Assembly: GCF_000016665.1 (NCBI RefSeq)
Contig: NC_009523.1
Coordinates: 124,001 to 188,000 of the forward strand
Reading direction: 5' to 3'
DNA length: 64,000 nt
Source: Roseiflexus sp. RS-1
Lineage (GTDB): Bacteria > Chloroflexota > Chloroflexia > Chloroflexales > Roseiflexaceae
In this document: in pieces, positions 26,197 through 62,690 of the stretch
How positions within the stretch are numbered: position 1 is the stretch's first letter
Layout of the letters: every line of letters begins with the position of its first letter
Translations under genes and position numbers: made by a program
The notes under the pieces: generated by a model
Database searches by the model: none
What the model was told of the DNA's origin: nothing
Seen by the model: the letters and a program-made list of their open reading frames with translations, nothing else

Positions 26197-27085
26197 CCAC
26201 CATGACCCCGAGACGGCGGCGACTGAGGTGGAGCATCTGGTCCGCCGTGACCCGCGGCAGTGTGGGCTGACCCAGACGCGCTGGACCCTGGACGCCATCC
26301 GCAGCCCGTTGGTGTGGGGACGCGACGCCGCGCTGCGCGGGATCGCCCGCATCCTGGATCGGTTGGGCATCACCTGGCAGCGCGCCCGCAGTCATGGGCA
26401 TAGCCCTGATCCTCACGATCAGGCCAAACTGCAGGAGATTGCGGACGTGGTGGAGGATGCCCGCGCGCACCCCAACCAGGTGGTGACCGTGTATCTGGAT
26501 GAAGTCACGGTCACCCGGCGCCCGACCCTGGCCAACGGGTATGGACGGGCAGGCGCCGATCAGGTGCGGGCGGAACGGAGTCGGGCGACCGATGGTGACC
26601 TGCGCATCGTGGGCAGTTTGGACGTCGTGACGGGCCAGGTGGTCACCCGGCGGGCGAAGACGATTGGCCTGGCGACGCTGGTGCGATTCTACCAGGATCT
26701 GCACGCTGCCTATCCTGAGGCTGAGCGCATCGATGTCATTCTGGATAATTGGCCGGTCCATTTTCATCCGGATGTCCTGGTGGCGCTCGAGCCGCAAACG
26801 ACCCGCTGGGCGTTTTCCCGTCCTGGCAATTGGCCGGCCACGCCCAGTGGACGGGCCGTGCGCCGGGCTGGAGATGTCCGCCTGCCCATCCAACTGATGC
26901 CGTTGCCGACGTATGCGTCGTGGTGCAATCCGATCGAGAAGCTGTGGCGGTGGATGCGTCAGGAGGTCACCCGCGTGCATCGCTGGGCGACGGATCTCGA
27001 TCAGTTGCGCAGCCATCTGGATGCCTTCTTCGCGTCGTTTGCAACCGGCTCGTCAAAGCTTTTACAGTATGTCGGTCTCGGATAG
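26195..27085 (+). CDS. IS630-like transposase, frame B (DDE catalytic part)
   Basis: The 296-residue continuation contains the DDE catalytic triad: Asp in VYLDEVTVT, Asp in VILDNWPVH, and Glu in WCNPIEKLWRWM. The first in-frame internal start is a GTG at 26228, but synthesis as a fusion with frame A by +1 frameshifting is more likely, since an active transposase needs both parts. The DDE core appears intact. Confidence 0.82.
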   Translation, partial: DHHDPETAATEVEHLVRRDPRQCGLTQTRWTLDAIRSPLVWGRDAALRGIARILDRLGITWQRARSHGHSPDPHDQAKLQEIADVVEDARAHPNQVVTVYLDEVTVTRRPTLANGYGRAGADQVRAERSRATDGDLRIVGSLDVVTGQVVTRRAKTIGLATLVRFYQDLHAAYPEAERIDVILDNWPVHFHPDVLVALEPQTTRWAFSRPGNWPATPSGRAVRRAGDVRLPIQLMPLPTYASWCNPIEKLWRWMRQEVTRVHRWATDLDQLRSHLDAFFASFATGSSKLLQYVGLG

Positions 27086-27156: not shown

Positions 27157-27400
27157 CAGCCCGACGGCACGAGGCGTATACCGGATCAAATTCTCAATAT
27201 TAGCCCCACGGCAAGCTCTCCTGTCGGGTGTCGTGTATTGGCTATTCCTCTGCCCAGCAGCAAGCTCTCCTATCGGCTATCGGCTATCGGCTATTCCTCA
27301 GCCCCACGGCCACAACGTTCGGCATATTCAATAATGCTGCCCTTCGCCATAGAGCAGGTAAGCGACGGCGGCAATTCCGGCAATCTCCGGTCTGGAGCGG
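27157..27400. repeat. Repeat block, inverted copy of the block at 40.4-40.6 kb
   Basis: From 27157 to about 27310, CAGCCCGACGGCACGAGGCGT, the TGTCGGGTGTCGTGTATTGG segment and the CTATCGG heptamers are the reverse complement of about 40425-40625. Gene-free. The following bases up to 27400 are further repeat debris. Confidence 0.7.
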
Positions 27401-27821: not shown

Positions 27822-28295
27822 ATGCCGTATGCCAGTATCAAACTCATCTTCCGGGCAGCGCCGCATGCCGGCGCAAGCCCGGCGCTGGTCAGCGCAACTG
27901 CGCGCCAGGTGGTGGCGAGTCTTGTGCAACAGAACCAGCGGATCGAACCGGTGTACGACGGTTCGCGGGGCGGCGATCTGTATCAGTGGCTGGTGGAGAC
28001 CGCAAACGCCGCACAACCGCTGATTCCACTTGCAACCCTGGCGCTTACCGTCGCCCAGTTGTTGAAGGAGGTAAAGAATCTCAGCAAAAGCGACACGAGC
28101 ACCCCCAGAGACCAACCACCGATCGTCGTCGTTGTGACCTGCGGTGACGCCACATGCACACCGCCTCCCGACAGCGATCAGGCGCTGCTGGAACAGTTGC
28201 TGCGCGAAACGTTTCCCGACCAGATCGAGCCTGACCGACTGAGCGTTGAAGTTCAGGTCGGCTCGCCACCGCCGCCGCCATCCCCCTTCGATTGA
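27822..28295 (+). CDS. Small protein of unknown function upstream of the caspase-STAND gene
   Basis: A 157-residue protein: an N-terminal strand (ASIKLIFRAA), a helix (ALVSATARQVVASLVQQ), DGSRGGDLYQWLVE, a long hydrophobic helix (PLIPLATLALTVAQLLKEV), then a strand (PPIVVVVTC) and a last helix ending before a proline-rich tail. The alternation of strands with one apolar helix is reminiscent of the small effector-associated constant components that accompany caspase- or NTPase-based conflict systems, but I cannot show homology. GGAG lies six bases before the ATG. It shares orientation with the large gene 288 bases downstream. Confidence 0.6.
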   Translation: MPYASIKLIFRAAPHAGASPALVSATARQVVASLVQQNQRIEPVYDGSRGGDLYQWLVETANAAQPLIPLATLALTVAQLLKEVKNLSKSDTSTPRDQPPIVVVVTCGDATCTPPPDSDQALLEQLLRETFPDQIEPDRLSVEVQVGSPPPPPSPFD

Positions 28296-28583: not shown

Positions 28584-31500
28584 ATGTCGAAACGCGCACT
28601 CATCATCGGCGTCAATCGCCCGCAGAACGATCCGACATTCGCTCCCCTGCGCAGCGCCGAACGCGATGCGAATGATCTGGCGAGCGCACTGCATGACTGC
28701 GGCTTCGCGGTGCAATCGCTGATCGGGCAACAGGCGACAACGGATGCCATCCGCAAGGCTGTTGCCAGATTGCGACGGCAGGCTGACAGCGAGAGTGATC
28801 TCTTCATAGCCTTTTCTGGTCACGGGGCCTGGATTCCTCCGGTGGCTGGACACCCCGATGGTACGACCTTCCTGGTCAGTGCCGATTACGAGAGCGAGAT
28901 CGCTACCGGCGACCCCAACTACTACCTCTCCCTCGACTGGTGGTACACCCAGTTGCTCGCCTGGGATAAGCCGCGTAGTGTGGTGCTGGCGCTCGATTGC
29001 TGCTTTGCCGGTAATGTCGCACAGGCTGCCGAGCGGCGATCTATCGGCGACGCGATTGAACAGCACTTTCGCGGCGTCACCGTTCCAACCGGACGCCTGC
29101 GCGCCTATCTGGCGGCAACTGTACCGGGCGAGAAAGCCTACGAAGATGACCGTGGCGGATTGTTGACGCAGGCAGTGGTGGCGTGTCTGCGCGATAAGGA
29201 CGGTCAGGGTGATGGGTTAGTCACGGTCCCGGCATTGATAGATGCCGTGAAAAAGCATGCTGCTCTGCACCCCGACCGGTCACATCCCTTCACCGAGTAC
29301 AAAGGTGATTACCACTGGGTGCTCGCCGATCACCGCGAAGCCCGACGAGCGGCACGGGAGGCGCAGCAGGCTGAGCAACGGCGCGCCGAGGCGCAACAGC
29401 GACTCAAACGCTGGCGGTCGCCGCGCAGCGCTGCCCGCCGCGACGAGTTGCTGCGCGGCTTTGTTGGGCGCGAAGCCGAATTGCGTGAACTTTCTAAAGA
29501 GATCGAGCGTCTGCGCGCCACCGGCGGCTACCTGCTGGTGACCGGCGTTGCCGGCCAGGGCAAGAGCAGCATCCTGGCGAAACTGATCGCCCACCGTGAA
29601 CCTGAACCAACCCCCGCCTACTTCATCCGCTTTACCCCCGGACCCTCAGAACAGGCTGCGCTGCTCGGTCACCTGGTCGCCGAGTTGCTGACCCTGGCCG
29701 AACGCGAAGCCGATGCGCTCACCTACCTGCCCGATGGCGACAGTGTCGTAGCGTTGTACAACAGCTTCGAGATTCTGCTGAACGATCTGGCAGCCCAACG
29801 ACCGTTGACACTGGTGATTGACGGGCTGGATCAGATCGAACCTGACCTGGCTGGACGGCGCGATCTGAGCTTCCTGCCCGAACGGCTGCCGCCCGGTGTG
29901 GTGCTGGTGATCGGCACCCGTCCCGACGACACGCTGAAGCCGCTCAAACTACGCACCCCGCACTGCGAATATTGCCTGCCGCCACTGAGCGAAGCCGACT
30001 TTGGCGAGCTGCTGCGTGATCGCGGCGTGACGCTCAGCGCGCATGAGCAATCGGAACTCTACCATGCGCTGCACGGTAATGCCTTCGACCTGGCATTTCT
30101 GGCGCAGGAGATACGCCAGACACCACACACTAAAATCGCCGCGTTGCTCCGGCGGGTCATCGCCAATCCACGCGACCTGTTCACGCCAACACTGGACCGG
30201 TTGCAGCGCGACTGGAACCTGTGGGAGAGGGTGTTGCGCCCCCTGCTGGGCACCTTGCTGGCTGCCCAGGAGCCGCTCAGCCGCGACGCTCTGCGCGAGA
30301 TTCTTAACGTCTCTCAGGATCGTATCCAGACCGCGATTGAGCGCCTGGGGGGGCTGCTTGGTGTGCGCGATGTACAGGGACAACCGAGGTACGGGTTGAT
30401 CCACCTGAAACTGATTGACTATTTGCGCACGGAGACGTTCGCCGCTGACGAACTGATCACCTGTCATGCCCAGATCGCAGCGTGGTGCGGTCGTGATCTG
30501 GCGCATCTCTGGCAACCAACAACCGATCTTGCCGAACAGGAACGGCGTGCCTACGGGCAAACCCACCTGGTCACGCATCTGGCAGCGGCGCAGAAGTATG
30601 ACGACGTCTGGCGTCTGTTAGACGCCGATGAGTACGGCGCAGCGAAGCGGCGTGCCGACCCTAGCCTGCGGGCGTACATTGCCGACCTTGATCGGGTGCG
30701 GCAGACAATAGCGGATGCGTCGGATCGCGACCGGCAGCAGATGGCGACATGGCTGGCGCGGGCCTGGCGCTATAGTCTGCTGCGGGTCAGCCTGACGGGT
30801 AAAGTTGACGCATGGCCGACGGAACTGTTCACAGCACTGGTTGCCATGGGGCGAGGCGCCGAAGCGCGTGACCGCGCCGAGTTGCTGAGCGATCCGAAAC
30901 AACGGGCAGAGGTGCTGACCGCAGTGGGGCGGGCGTTGCTGGAACGCGGCGCTGCCGGCGGGTTGGAGGCGTTCCGTCGTGCCCGCGCTGCTGCCGAGGC
31001 GATCTCTGACCCTTACAAGCGCGCCGAGGCCCTGCGCGCCCTGGCGCGGGCGCTGGCGGCGGCGGGGCAGTGGGAGGAGGCGCGGGCGGTCGTGGAGGCG
31101 ATAGCCGACCCCCTCTGGCGCGCCAGGGCGCTGGGGGATGTGGCAGGCGCGCTGGCGCGGGCGGGGCAGTGGGAGGAGGCGCGGGCGGTCGTGGAGGCGA
31201 TAGCCGACCCCGACGAGCGCGCCGAAGCGCTGGGGGATGTGGCAGGCGCGCTGGCGGCGGCGGGGCAGTGGGAGGAGGCGCGGGCGGTCGTGGAGGCGAT
31301 AGCCGACCCCTTCCGGCGCGCCAGGGCGCTGCGGAAGGTGGCAGGCGCGCTGGCGCAGGCGAGACGCTGGGACGACGCCCGCGCCGTCGCCGAGACGATT
31401 GCCGACCCCTTCTGGCGCGCCGAAGCGCTGCGGGAGGTGGCAGGCGCGCTGGCGGCGGCGGGGCAGTGGGAGGAGGCGCGGGCGGTCGCGGCGGCGATAG

Positions 31501-33779
31501 CCGACCCCTTCTGGCGCGCCGAAGCGCTGCGGGAGGTGGCAGGCGCGCTGGCGGCGGCGGGGCAGTGGGAGGAGGCGCGGGCGGTCGCGGCGGCGATAGC
31601 CGACCCCATCTGGCGCGCCAGGGCGCTGGGGGATGTGGCAGGCGCGCTGGCGGCGGCGGGGCAGTGGGAGGAGGCGCAGCGCACCTTTGCTGGAGCGCGG
31701 GCGGTCGCGGCGGCGATAGCCGACCCCGACAAGCGCGCCGAGGCCCTGCGCGCCCTGGCGCGGGCGCTGGCGGCGGCGGGGCAGTGGGAGGAGGCGCGGG
31801 CGGTCGCGGCGGCGATAGCCGACCCCAGAGAGCGCGCCGGGGTGCTGCGTGCGCTGGCAGGCGCGCTGGCGGCGGCGGGGCAGTGGGAGGAGGCGCGGGC
31901 GGTCGCGGAGGTGATAGCCGACCCCCTCCGGCGCGCCGAAGCGCTGGGGGATGTGGCAGGCGCGCTGGCGGCGGCGGGGCAGTGGGAGGAGGCGCGGGCG
32001 GTCGTGGAGGCGATAGCCGACCCCCTCTGGCGCGCCAGGGCGCTGGGGGATGTGGCAGGCGCGCTGGCGCGGGCGGGGCAGTGGGAGGAGGCGCGGGCGG
32101 TCGTGGAGGCGATAGCCGACCCCTACGAGCGCGCCTGGGCGCTGGTGGCTATGGCAGGCGCGCTGGCGGCGGCGGGGCAGTGGGAGGAGGCGCGGGCGGT
32201 CGCGGCGGCGATAGCCGACCCCAGGCAGCGCGCCGAAGCGCTGGGGGATGTGGCAGGCGCGCTGGCGGCGGCGGGGCAGTGGGAGGAGGCGCGGGCGGTC
32301 GTGGAGGCGATAGCCGACCCCTTCCGGCGCGCCAGGGCGCTGCGGAAGGTGGCAGGCGCGCTGGCGGCGGCGGGGCAGTGGGAGGAGGCGCGGGCGGTCG
32401 CGGCGGCGATAGCCGACCCCTACGAGCGCGCCGAAGCGCTGGGGGATGTGGCAGGCGCGCTGGCGCGGGCGAGACGCTGGGACGACGCCCGCGCCGTCGC
32501 CGAGACGATTGCCGACCCCTACAAGCGCGCCGAAGCGCTGGTGGCGCTGGCAGGCGCGCTGGCGGCGGCGGGGCAGTGGGAGGAGGCGCGGGCGGTCGCG
32601 GCGGCGATAGCCGACCCCCTCCAGCGCGCCGGGGTGCTGCGTGCGCTGGCAGGCGCGCTGGCGCGGGCGGGGCAGTGGACGGATGCCCAACAGACCTTCG
32701 CCGCCGCCCGGCAGAGCGCCGAGGCGATAGCCGACCCCTACAAGCGCGCCGAAGCGCTGGGGGATGTGGCAGGCGCGCTGGCGGCAGCGGGGCAGTGGGA
32801 GGAGGCGCGGGCGGTCGCGGCGGCGATAGCCGACCCCTTCTGGCGCGCCGAAGCGCTGGGGGATGTGGCAGGCGCGCTGGCGCGGGCGGGGCAGTGGGAG
32901 GAGGCGCGGGCGGTCGCGGCGGCGATAGCCGACCCCGACAAGCGCGCCTGGGCGCTGGTGGCGCTGGCAGGCGCGCTGGCGGCGGCGGGGCAGTGGGAGG
33001 AGGCGCGGGCGGTCGCGGCGGCGATAGCCGACCCCGACAAGCGCGCCTGGGCGCTGGTGGCTATGGCAGGCGCGCTGGCGGCGGCGGGGCAGTGGGAGGA
33101 GGCGCGGGCGGTCGCGGCGGCGATAGCCGACCCCAGGCAGCGCGCCGAAGCGCTGGGGGATGTGGCAGGCGCGCTGGCGCGGGCGGGGCAGTGGGAGGAG
33201 GCGCGGGCGGTCGCGGCGGCGATAGCCGACCCCAGCCAGCGCGCCGAAGCGCTGGGGGATGTGGCAGGCGCGCTGGCGCAGGCGGGTGATACCCAGGCGG
33301 CGCAGGCGACCTTTGCCGCCGCCCGCGCCGTCGCCGAGACGATTGCCGACCCCTACAAGCGCGCCGAAGCGCTGCGTGCGCTGGCAGGCGCGCTGGCGGC
33401 AGCGGGGCAGTGGGAGGAGGCGCGGGCGGTCGCGGCGGCGATAGCCGACCCCTACGAGCGCGCCAGGGCGCTGGTGGCTATGGCAGGCGCGCTGGCGCAC
33501 GCGGGGCAGTGGGCGTATGCCCGGCAGACCGCCGAGGCGATTGCCGACCTCCGCGAGCGCGCCGAGGCCCTGCGCGCCCTGGCGCAGGCGTTGATCCGCG
33601 CCGGTCAGATTGATGACGCCATGGCGCTGCTGGTCAGCGCATGGGCGCAGGCGCAGACTGTTGACGAGTTGACTAAACTTTTTACTATTGATGCCTCGTT
33701 ACTGCGTGCGTACCCGACGCTAGGCGGCGATCTGCCGGAGGCGTTCAATTGGGTAGAGCGAGTCGTGCGCGCCGGTTAG
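28584..33779 (+). CDS. Caspase-like protease fused to a STAND NTPase and about 25 TPR-like 33-residue repeats
   Basis: A 1731-residue protein. Residues 1-250 are a C14 caspase-like domain: RALIIGVN, catalytic His80 in AFSGHGAW and Cys140 in ALDCCFAGN. A charged helix (about 251-285) leads to FVGREAEL and a STAND-type NTPase: Walker A GVAGQGKS (321-328), Walker B LTLVIDGLDQ (408-417), VIGTRP (442-447), then a winged-helix-like region to about 650. Residues 823-1668 are 25 tandem repeats, mostly 33 residues (ALAAAGQWEEARAVAAAIAD, then PxxRAxALxxxAG), three of them 40 long. The STAND design suggests that ligand sensing by the repeats drives NTP-dependent oligomerisation and protease activation. 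Substrate and trigger are unknown. Confidence 0.9.
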   Translation: MSKRALIIGVNRPQNDPTFAPLRSAERDANDLASALHDCGFAVQSLIGQQATTDAIRKAVARLRRQADSESDLFIAFSGHGAWIPPVAGHPDGTTFLVSADYESEIATGDPNYYLSLDWWYTQLLAWDKPRSVVLALDCCFAGNVAQAAERRSIGDAIEQHFRGVTVPTGRLRAYLAATVPGEKAYEDDRGGLLTQAVVACLRDKDGQGDGLVTVPALIDAVKKHAALHPDRSHPFTEYKGDYHWVLADHREARRAAREAQQAEQRRAEAQQRLKRWRSPRSAARRDELLRGFVGREAELRELSKEIERLRATGGYLLVTGVAGQGKSSILAKLIAHREPEPTPAYFIRFTPGPSEQAALLGHLVAELLTLAEREADALTYLPDGDSVVALYNSFEILLNDLAAQRPLTLVIDGLDQIEPDLAGRRDLSFLPERLPPGVVLVIGTRPDDTLKPLKLRTPHCEYCLPPLSEADFGELLRDRGVTLSAHEQSELYHALHGNAFDLAFLAQEIRQTPHTKIAALLRRVIANPRDLFTPTLDRLQRDWNLWERVLRPLLGTLLAAQEPLSRDALREILNVSQDRIQTAIERLGGLLGVRDVQGQPRYGLIHLKLIDYLRTETFAADELITCHAQIAAWCGRDLAHLWQPTTDLAEQERRAYGQTHLVTHLAAAQKYDDVWRLLDADEYGAAKRRADPSLRAYIADLDRVRQTIADASDRDRQQMATWLARAWRYSLLRVSLTGKVDAWPTELFTALVAMGRGAEARDRAELLSDPKQRAEVLTAVGRALLERGAAGGLEAFRRARAAAEAISDPYKRAEALRALARALAAAGQWEEARAVVEAIADPLWRARALGDVAGALARAGQWEEARAVVEAIADPDERAEALGDVAGALAAAGQWEEARAVVEAIADPFRRARALRKVAGALAQARRWDDARAVAETIADPFWRAEALREVAGALAAAGQWEEARAVAAAIADPFWRAEALREVAGALAAAGQWEEARAVAAAIADPIWRARALGDVAGALAAAGQWEEAQRTFAGARAVAAAIADPDKRAEALRALARALAAAGQWEEARAVAAAIADPRERAGVLRALAGALAAAGQWEEARAVAEVIADPLRRAEALGDVAGALAAAGQWEEARAVVEAIADPLWRARALGDVAGALARAGQWEEARAVVEAIADPYERAWALVAMAGALAAAGQWEEARAVAAAIADPRQRAEALGDVAGALAAAGQWEEARAVVEAIADPFRRARALRKVAGALAAAGQWEEARAVAAAIADPYERAEALGDVAGALARARRWDDARAVAETIADPYKRAEALVALAGALAAAGQWEEARAVAAAIADPLQRAGVLRALAGALARAGQWTDAQQTFAAARQSAEAIADPYKRAEALGDVAGALAAAGQWEEARAVAAAIADPFWRAEALGDVAGALARAGQWEEARAVAAAIADPDKRAWALVALAGALAAAGQWEEARAVAAAIADPDKRAWALVAMAGALAAAGQWEEARAVAAAIADPRQRAEALGDVAGALARAGQWEEARAVAAAIADPSQRAEALGDVAGALAQAGDTQAAQATFAAARAVAETIADPYKRAEALRALAGALAAAGQWEEARAVAAAIADPYERARALVAMAGALAHAGQWAYARQTAEAIADLRERAEALRALAQALIRAGQIDDAMALLVSAWAQAQTVDELTKLFTIDASLLRAYPTLGGDLPEAFNWVERVVRAG
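31050..33587 (+). repeat. 25 tandem 99-bp (three 120-bp) in-frame repeats
   Basis: Units of 99 bases encode 33 residues; units 7, 17 and 23 carry a seven-residue insertion (AQRTFAG, AQQTFAA, AQATFAA). Most codons are identical between units, while positions 22-23, 26 and 29-31 vary. A partial 26th unit follows. Such high identity implies recent expansion by recombination, and copy number may vary between strains. Confidence 0.95.
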
Positions 33780-40430: not shown

Positions 40431-40577
40431 CAGAGGAATAGCCGATAGCCGATAGCCGATAGGAGAGCTTGCTGCTGGGCAGAGGAATAGCCGATAGCCG
40501 ATAGCCGATAGGAGAGCTTGCTGCTGGGCAGAGGAATAGCCGATACACGACACCCGACAGGAGAGCTTGCCGTGGGG
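40431..40577. repeat. Three tandem copies of a 49-bp repeat
   Basis: Copies begin CAGAGGAATAGCC at 40431, 40480 and 40529, and each contains AGCCGAT heptamers and GGAGAGCTTGCTG. The third is diverged. Reverse-orientation copies are at 27200-27310. Confidence 0.85.
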
Positions 40578-61503: not shown

Positions 61504-61601
61504 ATAGCCGATAATCGATAGCCGATAGCCGATAATCGATAGCCGATAGCCGATAATCGATAGCCGATAATCGATAGCCGATAGCCGATAATCGATAGCC
61601 G
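61504..61601. repeat. 14-unit heptamer array of two variants
   Basis: Fourteen consecutive heptamers are either ATAGCCG (A) or ATAATCG (B), in the order A B A A B A A B A B A A B A. Single A-like units also occur at 61858, 62124 and in the 40.4 and 27.2 kb repeats. Confidence 0.95.
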
Positions 61602-61620
61602 ATAGGCGAGAGGCAAGAGG

Positions 61621-62418
61621 GTCATCATTGGAGTTCACGTTCCGCGCAGGCAGGCTTTGCCCTGGCTAGCCGAGGGCTTCAGCCCGACGGCAAGCGGCGC
61701 ATAGCAGAAGATGGAACGTTCCAGAAAGCGTTCAGCGATTGAAATCGCCTCTGGAAGGCTTTTCGCCGGGCATCCACCTGCGTGGACGCTGCCACGGCGA
61801 CCGCATAGGCGGTCGCCCGGCGCGAAGCGTCCGCTCAGGCGCGGTTTCAACCGCTCATCGATAGCCGATGACCGATAGGCGACAGGGTCATCATTGGAGT
61901 TCGCGTTCCGCGCAGGCGGGCTTTGCCTTAGCTAGCCGAGGGCTTCAGCCCGACGGCAAGCGGCGCATAGCAGAAGATGGAACGTTCCAGAAAGCGTTCA
62001 GCGATTGAAATCGCCTCTGGAAGGCTTTTCGCCGGGCGTCCACCTGCGTGGACGCTGCCACGGCGACCGCATAGGCGGTCGCCCGGCGCGAAGCGTCCGC
62101 TCAGGCGCGGTTTCAACCGCTCATCGATAGCCGATAGGCGAGAGGCAAGAGGGTCATCATTGGAGTTCACGTTCCGCGCAGGCAGGCTTTGCCCTGGCTA
62201 GCCGGGGGCTTCAGCCCGACGGCAAGCGGCGCATAGCAGAAGATGGAACGTTCCAGAAAGCGTTCAGCGATTGAAATCGCCTCTGGAAGGCTTTTCGCCG
62301 GGCGTCCACCTGCGTGGACGCTGCCACGGCGACCGCATAGGCGGTCGCCCGGCGCGAAGCGTCCGCTCAGGCGCGGTTTCAACCGCTCATCGATAGCCGA
62401 TAGGCGAGAGGCAAGAGG
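61621..62418. repeat. Three tandem 266-bp repeats
   Basis: Copies start GTCATCATTGGAGTT at 61621, 61887 and 62153, and the start recurs at 62419. Each includes AGCCGAGGGCTTCAGCCC, GAAACGCTTTCTGG-type (CCAGAAAGCGTTCAGCGATT) and several inverted repeats. Minus-strand frames inside them are near-identical copies and almost certainly not genes. Confidence 0.93.
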
Positions 62419-62690
62419 GTCATCATTGGAGTTCACGTTCCGCGCAGGCGGGCTTTGCCCTGGTTAGCCGAGGGCTTCAGCCCCACGGCTAGCGCAGTAT
62501 AGCGGATTTAATTTTCAACCTCCATCAGCCCGACGGCTCGCGCGGGATAGCGGATTTAATGCTCAATCTCCATCAGCCCGACGGCTCGTGCGGGATAGCG
62601 GATTATAGCGGTTCTCAGATACGTTGACTCCTGTCCGGGTCTGCCGTGTCGTGCGAGGCGCCCGTTTCCGGCAGAGCGTAGACCGAAATT
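62419..62690. repeat. Decayed ends of the MITE-like family
   Basis: GGATTTAATTTTCAACCTCC and GGATTTAATGCTCAATCTCC follow one another at about 62505 and 62543, each followed by CATCAGCCCGACGGCTCG. No gene. Confidence 0.65.

What the first reader, a model, noticed from the sequence alone, without database searches (positions are those of the whole stretch)
31050..33587. Hypervariable positions within otherwise identical 33-residue repeats
Across 25 units, residues 22-23 (the two after Asp-Pro) show at least 13 different pairs (LW, DE, FR, FW, IW, DK, RE, LR, YE, RQ, YK, LQ, SQ), and positions 26 and 29-31 also vary, while the rest hardly changes. This resembles repeat proteins that read a ligand with a few positions per repeat. 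Three units with a seven-residue insert look ancestral; the 33-mers look recently expanded.
Basis: partly seen in the sequence, partly recalled or inferred. Interest (0 to 1): 0.75.

Follow-up and report, generated by a model that had tools for sequence, protein, structure and literature searches.

The report
Shuffled, diversified sensor of bacterial NLR
A bacterial protein built like an animal or fungal immune receptor carries 25 near-identical repeats that differ from one another mainly on one exposed face of a predicted helix, and the pattern suggests a fast-evolving recognition surface that is continually reshuffled.

Summary
The 1,731-aa ORF at 28584-33779 holds 25 in-register units (22 of 33 aa, 3 of 40 aa). 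All 13 listed residue pairs are present. Seven positions (unit 4, 5, 8, 11, 12, 13, 19) carry most of the variation. The array is the C-terminal part of a caspase-like peptidase + STAND (NACHT/NLR-like) NTPase + TPR protein, usually with a small gene just upstream. AlphaFold2 (pLDDT 91.8) gives a two-helix solenoid. All variable positions lie in helix A; all but position 13 (only V/L/M) sit on the face opposite its hydrophobic face and map to the known concave ligand positions of TPRs. In five genomes, replacement diversity at codons 4, 5, 8 is 2.1-8.2 times four-fold synonymous diversity. A horizontally related copy in another family keeps the enzyme half (87.5% aa identity, dN/dS 0.21), but its array has another consensus and no shared unit order. 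No diversity-generating retroelement was found. Best reading: a diversified sensor of an NLR-like, caspase-armed receptor, a bacterial TPR parallel to the fungal HET-E/HET-D WD40 receptors. Recognition of a protein, defence and cell death are inferred, not shown. New variant of a known kind.

The parts
27822..28295 (+). Small partner gene (157 aa, ATG start) immediately upstream; a homologue sits directly upstream of the related STAND-TPR gene in six other genomes, with one exception (G034)
   Evidence: no Pfam, NCBIfam or PADLOC match
28584..33779 (+). 1,731-aa ORF: caspase-like peptidase + STAND NTPase + TPR-like repeat array
28590..29201 (+). Peptidase_C14 (caspase-like) domain, aa 3-206; candidate catalytic dyad H80 and C140 conserved in the five aligned orthologues
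   Evidence: Pfam PF00656 E 7.7e-15, above cut-off; alignment A1
29451..30653 (+). STAND/NACHT-type P-loop NTPase region, aa about 290-690 (Walker A GVAGQGKSS, Walker B LTLVIDGLDQI)
   Evidence: PADLOC STAND_TPR 109 bits
30888..31004 (+). Divergent first repeat (39 aa), N-terminal cap of the array
31005..33542 (+). Array of 25 near-identical TPR-like units with hypervariable positions 4, 5, 8, 11, 12, 13, 19
31599..31718 (+). 40-aa unit (7-aa insert in helix B)
32610..32729 (+). 40-aa unit (7-aa insert in helix B; helix B is 16 residues in the model instead of 9)
33225..33344 (+). 40-aa unit (7-aa insert in helix B)
33543..33776 (+). Degenerate last unit plus C-terminal tail (cap); 82% aa identical to the tails of G047 and G001

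Best explanation
The array is the sensor of an NLR-like (STAND) receptor. About 27 TPR-like two-helix units form a superhelix. Recombination between the near-identical 99-bp units keeps the scaffold homogeneous and reshuffles units, while selection diversifies about six positions per unit on the exposed (predicted concave) face of helix A, so receptor specificity changes quickly. By analogy with STAND receptors, ligand binding would release the NTPase to oligomerise and activate the N-terminal caspase-like peptidase, with the usually co-inherited small upstream protein as partner or target. Shown here: domain architecture, two-gene association, the hypervariable columns, excess of replacement over synonymous diversity, lineage-specific homogenisation, transfer between bacterial families, predicted fold and face. 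Inferred: that the ligand is a protein (phage or non-self), oligomerisation, and a cell-death or defence outcome.
For: Architecture: Peptidase_C14, NACHT-like P-loop NTPase and TPR, PADLOC STAND_TPR 109 bits and caspase 39.6 bits, Walker A/B and His/Cys conserved. Variable columns agree with literature TPR ligand positions: unit 4, 5, 8, 11, 12, 19 = TPR 33, 34, 2, 5, 6, 13; PMC1261162 gives 2, 5, 9, 12, 13, 33, 34 as hypervariable and 2, 5, 6, 9, 12, 13 as peptide contacts; top-7 overlap with the hypervariable set p = 0.0016. Model pLDDT 91.8, helix A = positions 3-19; one face, opposite the hydrophobic moment, with the same direction (70-100 degrees) in six genomes, though significant in only four. 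Selection: replacement diversity at codons 4, 5, 8 is 2.1-8.2 times four-fold diversity in five genomes, against dN/dS 0.21 in the enzyme half. Concerted evolution: scaffold identity between units is 0.89 and 0.76 within the two arrays but 0.71 between them; positions 4, 5, 8 show hardly any lineage difference (0.22, 0.26, 0.20); unit order is not shared. Transfer: 87.5% aa identity between families where ValRS is 72%. The sister-species locus drops from about 96% DNA identity over valS to 82-86% over the last repeats and tail.
Against: No ligand, phage phenotype or cell death is shown. Pfam NACHT alone is just under its cut-off (25.2 against 26.7). TPR positions 9 and 12 (unit 15 and 18) hardly vary here, while TPR 7 (unit 13) varies conservatively. 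Closest solved structures by VIA Z are designed PPR proteins that bind RNA or ssDNA (Z about 20) ahead of TPR proteins (Z 15), with rmsd mostly over 13 A over the whole array. Concavity is inferred from the TPR register, because no coordinates were available. The window is not in a recognised defence island; the downstream neighbour is valS.
Confidence: 0.7

Rival explanations
1. Scaffold with neutral surface drift: repeats are homogenised by recombination and the variable positions are simply exposed sites free to drift; the array only provides length or a scaffold.
For: Variable sites lie on the face away from the hydrophobic core; single-step codon networks at positions 4 and 5 fit ordinary point mutation.
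Against: Neutral drift should not give replacement diversity 2-8 times four-fold synonymous diversity, with bootstrap intervals above 1 in five genomes. Helix B varies less than helix A in the window array (mean entropy 0.56 against 0.77).
Confidence: 0.12
2. A PPR-like or TALE-like nucleic-acid reader: one unit reads one base through the variable residues.
For: Best VIA matches are designed PPR proteins bound to RNA or ssDNA, Z about 20; weak PPR profile hits.
Against: Anchored on the helix-helix turn, PPR code position 35 maps to invariant A7 and position 2 to near-invariant A9 (other anchors differ). Residues used are large, aromatic and charged (Y F L D R I S; W K E R Q), not the small polar PPR code set (own knowledge). 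The array sits on a STAND-caspase receptor.
Confidence: 0.06
3. Targeted hypermutation by a diversity-generating retroelement makes the variation.
For: Codons are mostly NNC at position 4 and NNG at position 5; DGRs diversify sensors of similar conflict systems (PMC10907252).
Against: The only reverse-transcriptase match in the genome is about 3.6 Mb away; every perfect match to the unit motif listed for the genome lies in the array itself, so no template repeat was found. Variation spreads over about 25 units, unlike a single variable repeat.
Confidence: 0.02
4. Allorecognition rather than phage defence: the array distinguishes self from non-self filaments, as in fungal heterokaryon incompatibility.
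For: Same evolutionary signature as HET-E/HET-D (PMC12222747); the carriers named by the tools include Chloroflexus and Herpetosiphon, which are filamentous (own knowledge).
Against: No cytoplasmic fusion is known in these bacteria (own knowledge); no polymorphic target gene identified.
Confidence: 0.1

Closest known systems
Fungal HNWD NLR receptors (HET-E, HET-D, HET-R of Podospora anserina)
   Same: N-terminal effector, NACHT-type NTPase, C-terminal array of near-identical repeats homogenised by concerted evolution, with a few codons per repeat under diversifying selection at the predicted interaction surface (PMC12222747)
   Different: WD40 propeller instead of a TPR-like solenoid; HET domain instead of caspase; fungal; partner known (HET-C)
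Bacterial antiviral STAND (Avs) and bNACHT proteins
   Same: Effector-STAND-repeat sensor layout, TPR sensors
   Different: As described in PMC10907252, known Avs sense conserved phage proteins; here the repeats are near-identical and diversified; only 15.7 bits to Avs2
EACC1-caspase two-gene conflict systems (System 4 of Kaur et al. 2020, PMC7159879)
   Same: Small 5' gene followed by a caspase gene with variable C-terminal modules, including STAND and repeats
   Different: The 5' protein has no match to EACC1; caspase 53.7 bits against a cut-off of 140 for caspase_w_EACC1
Highly repetitive WD40 proteins of prokaryotes (PMC5587647)
   Same: Very high internal repeat identity, recent duplication
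   Different: WD40 fold; no hypervariable recognition positions in the passages read
TPR and PPR repeat proteins
   Same: Two-helix solenoid; variable positions on helix A match TPR ligand positions
   Different: 33-aa period, helix A 17 residues and helix B only 9

Membership tests
STAND / NLR-like receptor | P-loop NTPase with Walker A and B between an N-terminal effector and C-terminal repeats | tested here: met
   GVAGQGKSS and L(V/M)IDGLDQ in orthologues; NPHP3_N above cut-off, NACHT 25.2 of 26.7 bits; PADLOC STAND_TPR 109 bits
STAND / NLR-like receptor | Ligand-induced oligomerisation and effector activation | not testable with these tools
   Needs biochemistry
Caspase-like peptidase (C14) | Family profile and His/Cys catalytic dyad | tested here: met
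   PF00656 55.6 bits, cut-off 21.4; H80 and C140 invariant in five orthologues
TPR repeat | TPR profile and helix-turn-helix units | tested here: met
   TPR_19 93.9 bits, cut-off 25; helices A 3-19 and B 23-31, pLDDT 91.8
TPR repeat | Canonical 34-residue period | tested here: not met
   33 or 40 residues; TPR-like variant
NLR with highly conserved internal repeats (HNWD-type behaviour) | Near-identical repeats with a few diversified codons per repeat | tested here: met
NLR with highly conserved internal repeats (HNWD-type behaviour) | HET-NACHT-WD40 family membership | tested here: not met
   No WD40 or HET match in Pfam; works like, is not a member
NLR with highly conserved internal repeats (HNWD-type behaviour) | Allelic variation in unit number and composition within a species | not testable with these tools
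   One genome per species held; metagenome scans capped at zero
EACC1-caspase conflict system | 5' gene with the EACC1 domain | tested here: not met
   No PF19953 match; none in this genome
EACC1-caspase conflict system | Two-gene order, small gene then caspase gene | tested here: met
   (exception G034, where the small gene is on another contig)
Diversity-generating retroelement target | Nearby RT and template repeat | tested here: not met
PPR nucleic-acid reader | Code positions 2, 5 and 35 variable | tested here: inconclusive
   Only one of three varies with the turn-anchored register; other anchors shift this
TAL effector | TAL effector repeat profile | tested here: not met
   No such Pfam match up to E = 1

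The most novel reading that the evidence does not exclude
Filamentous phototrophic bacteria use a recombining library of near-identical TPR-like modules, without any retroelement, as a rapidly re-assorting receptor repertoire on a caspase-armed NLR, a prokaryotic equivalent of fungal het genes, spread between families as a two-gene cassette.
Probability: 0.35. Interest if true: 0.82.

Novelty: new variant of a known kind. Interest (0 to 1): 0.62.

Why it matters
It would show that the receptor-diversifying strategy known from fungal HET-E/HET-D (homogenised repeats plus a few selected codons) also exists in bacteria on a TPR-like scaffold and without a retroelement. It gives a concrete list of about six specificity positions per unit, and hence a testable route to ask what a bacterial NLR of unknown ligand recognises.

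Tried and rejected
DGR: no template repeat and no nearby RT. EACC1 identity of the upstream gene: no Pfam match even at E = 10; its AlphaFold2 model has pLDDT 49.5 and was not searched. Viral spread: no relative in viral contigs. Plasmids: only distant relatives, the best on the Herpetosiphon aurantiacus plasmids. Genome collection scan: four loci, three of them in Chloroflexus. Higher-order repeat structure: no lag stands out beyond a weak rise at 8. The Nei-Gojobori ratio at codons 4, 5, 8 was uninformative because path counting inflates synonymous changes at multi-step codons; four-fold diversity was used instead. Reading the RT locus by Pfam failed on frame and was not repeated. Marold 2015 on TPR-like proteins with high internal identity was not held.

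Full report
Observation. The window holds one ORF, 28584-33779 (+), 1,731 aa. Its C-terminal half contains 25 in-register units from 31005 to 33542, 22 of 33 aa and three of 40 aa, between a divergent first unit (30888) and a degenerate last unit plus tail (33543-33776). All 13 residue pairs that it lists are present and there are no others. Mean pairwise identity is 0.30 at the six named columns and 0.87 elsewhere. Position 19 is a further variable column. Of 24 units, 22 have distinct signatures over the seven variable positions.

What the protein is. Pfam finds Peptidase_C14 (aa 3-206, above cut-off), a NACHT/NPHP3-type P-loop NTPase (aa about 313-480) and TPR families over the array. PADLOC gives STAND_TPR (109 bits) and caspase (39.6 bits). 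In five aligned orthologues the candidate dyad residues H80 and C140, the Walker A motif and the Walker B core are conserved. This is the effector-STAND-repeat layout of NLR-like receptors. A 157-aa gene lies just upstream (27822-28295). Homologues lie directly upstream of the related gene in G047, G054, G050, G056 and G062 and in a Chloroflexus MAG. G034 is an exception: its small-gene homologue is on another contig and none was found upstream of its caspase gene. So the two genes usually, not always, travel together. The small protein matches no family (weak single hit). The layout recalls the EACC1-caspase pairs of Kaur et al. 2020 (PMC7159879), but EACC1 itself was tested and not met.

Where else it occurs. 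Close orthologues are sparse: none at E below 1e-30 in five same-genus genomes for the enzyme half, but 87% in G047 of another family and 53-56% in three further genomes of that genus. ValRS is 72% identical between the window genome and G047, while the enzyme half of the receptor is 87.5% identical, with dS 0.35 and dN/dS 0.21. That indicates horizontal transfer and purifying selection on the enzyme half. One same-genus genome (G001) has the same locus beside valS, but its contig ends inside the array. There, DNA identity is about 96% over valS and drops to 82-86% over the last repeats and tail.

How the array evolves. Each genome has its own repeat consensus. For the window array and G047, scaffold identity between units is 0.89 and 0.76 within arrays but 0.71 between them; at positions 4, 5 and 8 it is 0.22 and 0.26 within and 0.20 between. 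Unit order by residue pair is not shared beyond chance (longest common subsequence 6, null mean 6.3). So scaffolds are homogenised within each lineage while the variable positions keep a diverse set of residues. Four-gamete combinations occur even between adjacent codons 4 and 5, which fits recombination or recurrent mutation. Replacement diversity at codons 4, 5, 8 is 8.2 times four-fold synonymous diversity in the window array (95% bootstrap interval 5.2-15.3), and 2.3, 7.9, 2.1 and 3.9 times in G047, G054, G050 and G042. The columns were chosen on the window array, so the other four genomes are tests of that choice. Diversifying selection is the simplest reading. A retroelement is not: the genome's only RT match is megabases away and no template repeat was found.

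Where the variable positions are. AlphaFold2 on a 10-unit fragment, with an alignment made of the array itself and one relative, gives pLDDT 91.8, with helix A at unit positions 3-19 and helix B at 23-31. Positions 4, 5, 8, 11, 12, 19 cluster on one face of helix A (p = 0.005). By entropy weighting the face points to 93 degrees, against 275 degrees for the hydrophobic moment. The direction is 70-100 degrees in all six genomes tested, with p below 0.05 in four. Aligned on the helix-helix turn, these are TPR positions 33, 34, 2, 5, 6 and 13. Magliery and Regan report 2, 5, 9, 12, 13, 33, 34 as the hypervariable concave positions and 2, 5, 6, 9, 12, 13 as peptide contacts (PMC1261162). Five of the top seven columns fall in the hypervariable set (p = 0.0016). 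Structural neighbours include TPR and designed PPR proteins.

Most likely working. The array is a sensor superhelix whose inner face is diversified; binding is relayed through the STAND NTPase to the caspase-like domain. The relay, the ligand class and the outcome are inferred from the family. Rivals are neutral surface drift (disfavoured), a PPR-like nucleic-acid reader (possible by fold, disfavoured by residue chemistry), a DGR target (rejected), and allorecognition as the biological use.

Relation to the known. The closest parallel is the fungal HNWD receptors: WD40 repeats over 80% identical, thought to evolve in concert, with four codon positions under diversifying selection at the predicted interaction surface (PMC12222747). 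That paper also notes that NLRs with ankyrin, TPR and HEAT repeats of high internal conservation exist in fungi, and that highly repetitive WD40 proteins are most frequent in fungal and bacterial genomes (citing PMC5587647). A bacterial TPR case with a mapped, selected face was not found in the papers searched, but the paper library is partial. The verdict is a new variant of a known kind.

Names. The tools name G050 as Chloroflexus islandicus (contig length equal to the record behind L080) and G042 as Herpetosiphon aurantiacus DSM 785 (plasmid lengths). The window genome is 5,801,598 bases in one contig; from memory this fits Roseiflexus sp. RS-1, which was not confirmed by a tool.

Noticed in passing
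L065:3783-8306 (-), same genome at 4.098 Mb: A second array protein (1,508-aa open frame, no Pfam match, P-loop-like motif) with 32/36-aa units ALAALAPHLP..., again varying mainly in one short stretch between helices (DSEYRRSE, ADEYWRSE, RDADDQVA); a different consensus with a similar design.
   Followed up: partly
L066 (G042, Herpetosiphon aurantiacus): A related STAND-TPR array protein carries a CHAT peptidase instead of the caspase domain, an effector swap; this genome has ten enzyme-half matches.
   Followed up: partly
L110, L111, L114, L115: Distant homologues of the small upstream gene sit next to other TPR proteins, here downstream of them, so the small family is not tied to the caspase gene alone.
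   Followed up: partly
L108:670-5997 (-) with the small gene upstream (G062): A further two-gene relative whose 1,776-aa protein has a much less homogeneous array of 33/40-aa units.
   Followed up: no
window 27270-27294, 40438-40511, 61504-62494: Short 7-bp arrays (ATAGCCG and its complement) and a 266-bp tandem repeat with 3.4 copies at 95% match.
   Followed up: no
window 26228-27085: DDE-type transposase (HTH_33 + DDE_3) upstream of the cassette.
   Followed up: no
window 30618-33500 (-): A 960-aa antisense ORF overlaps the array; it follows mechanically from the GC-rich 99-bp repeats and is not taken as a gene.
   Followed up: no
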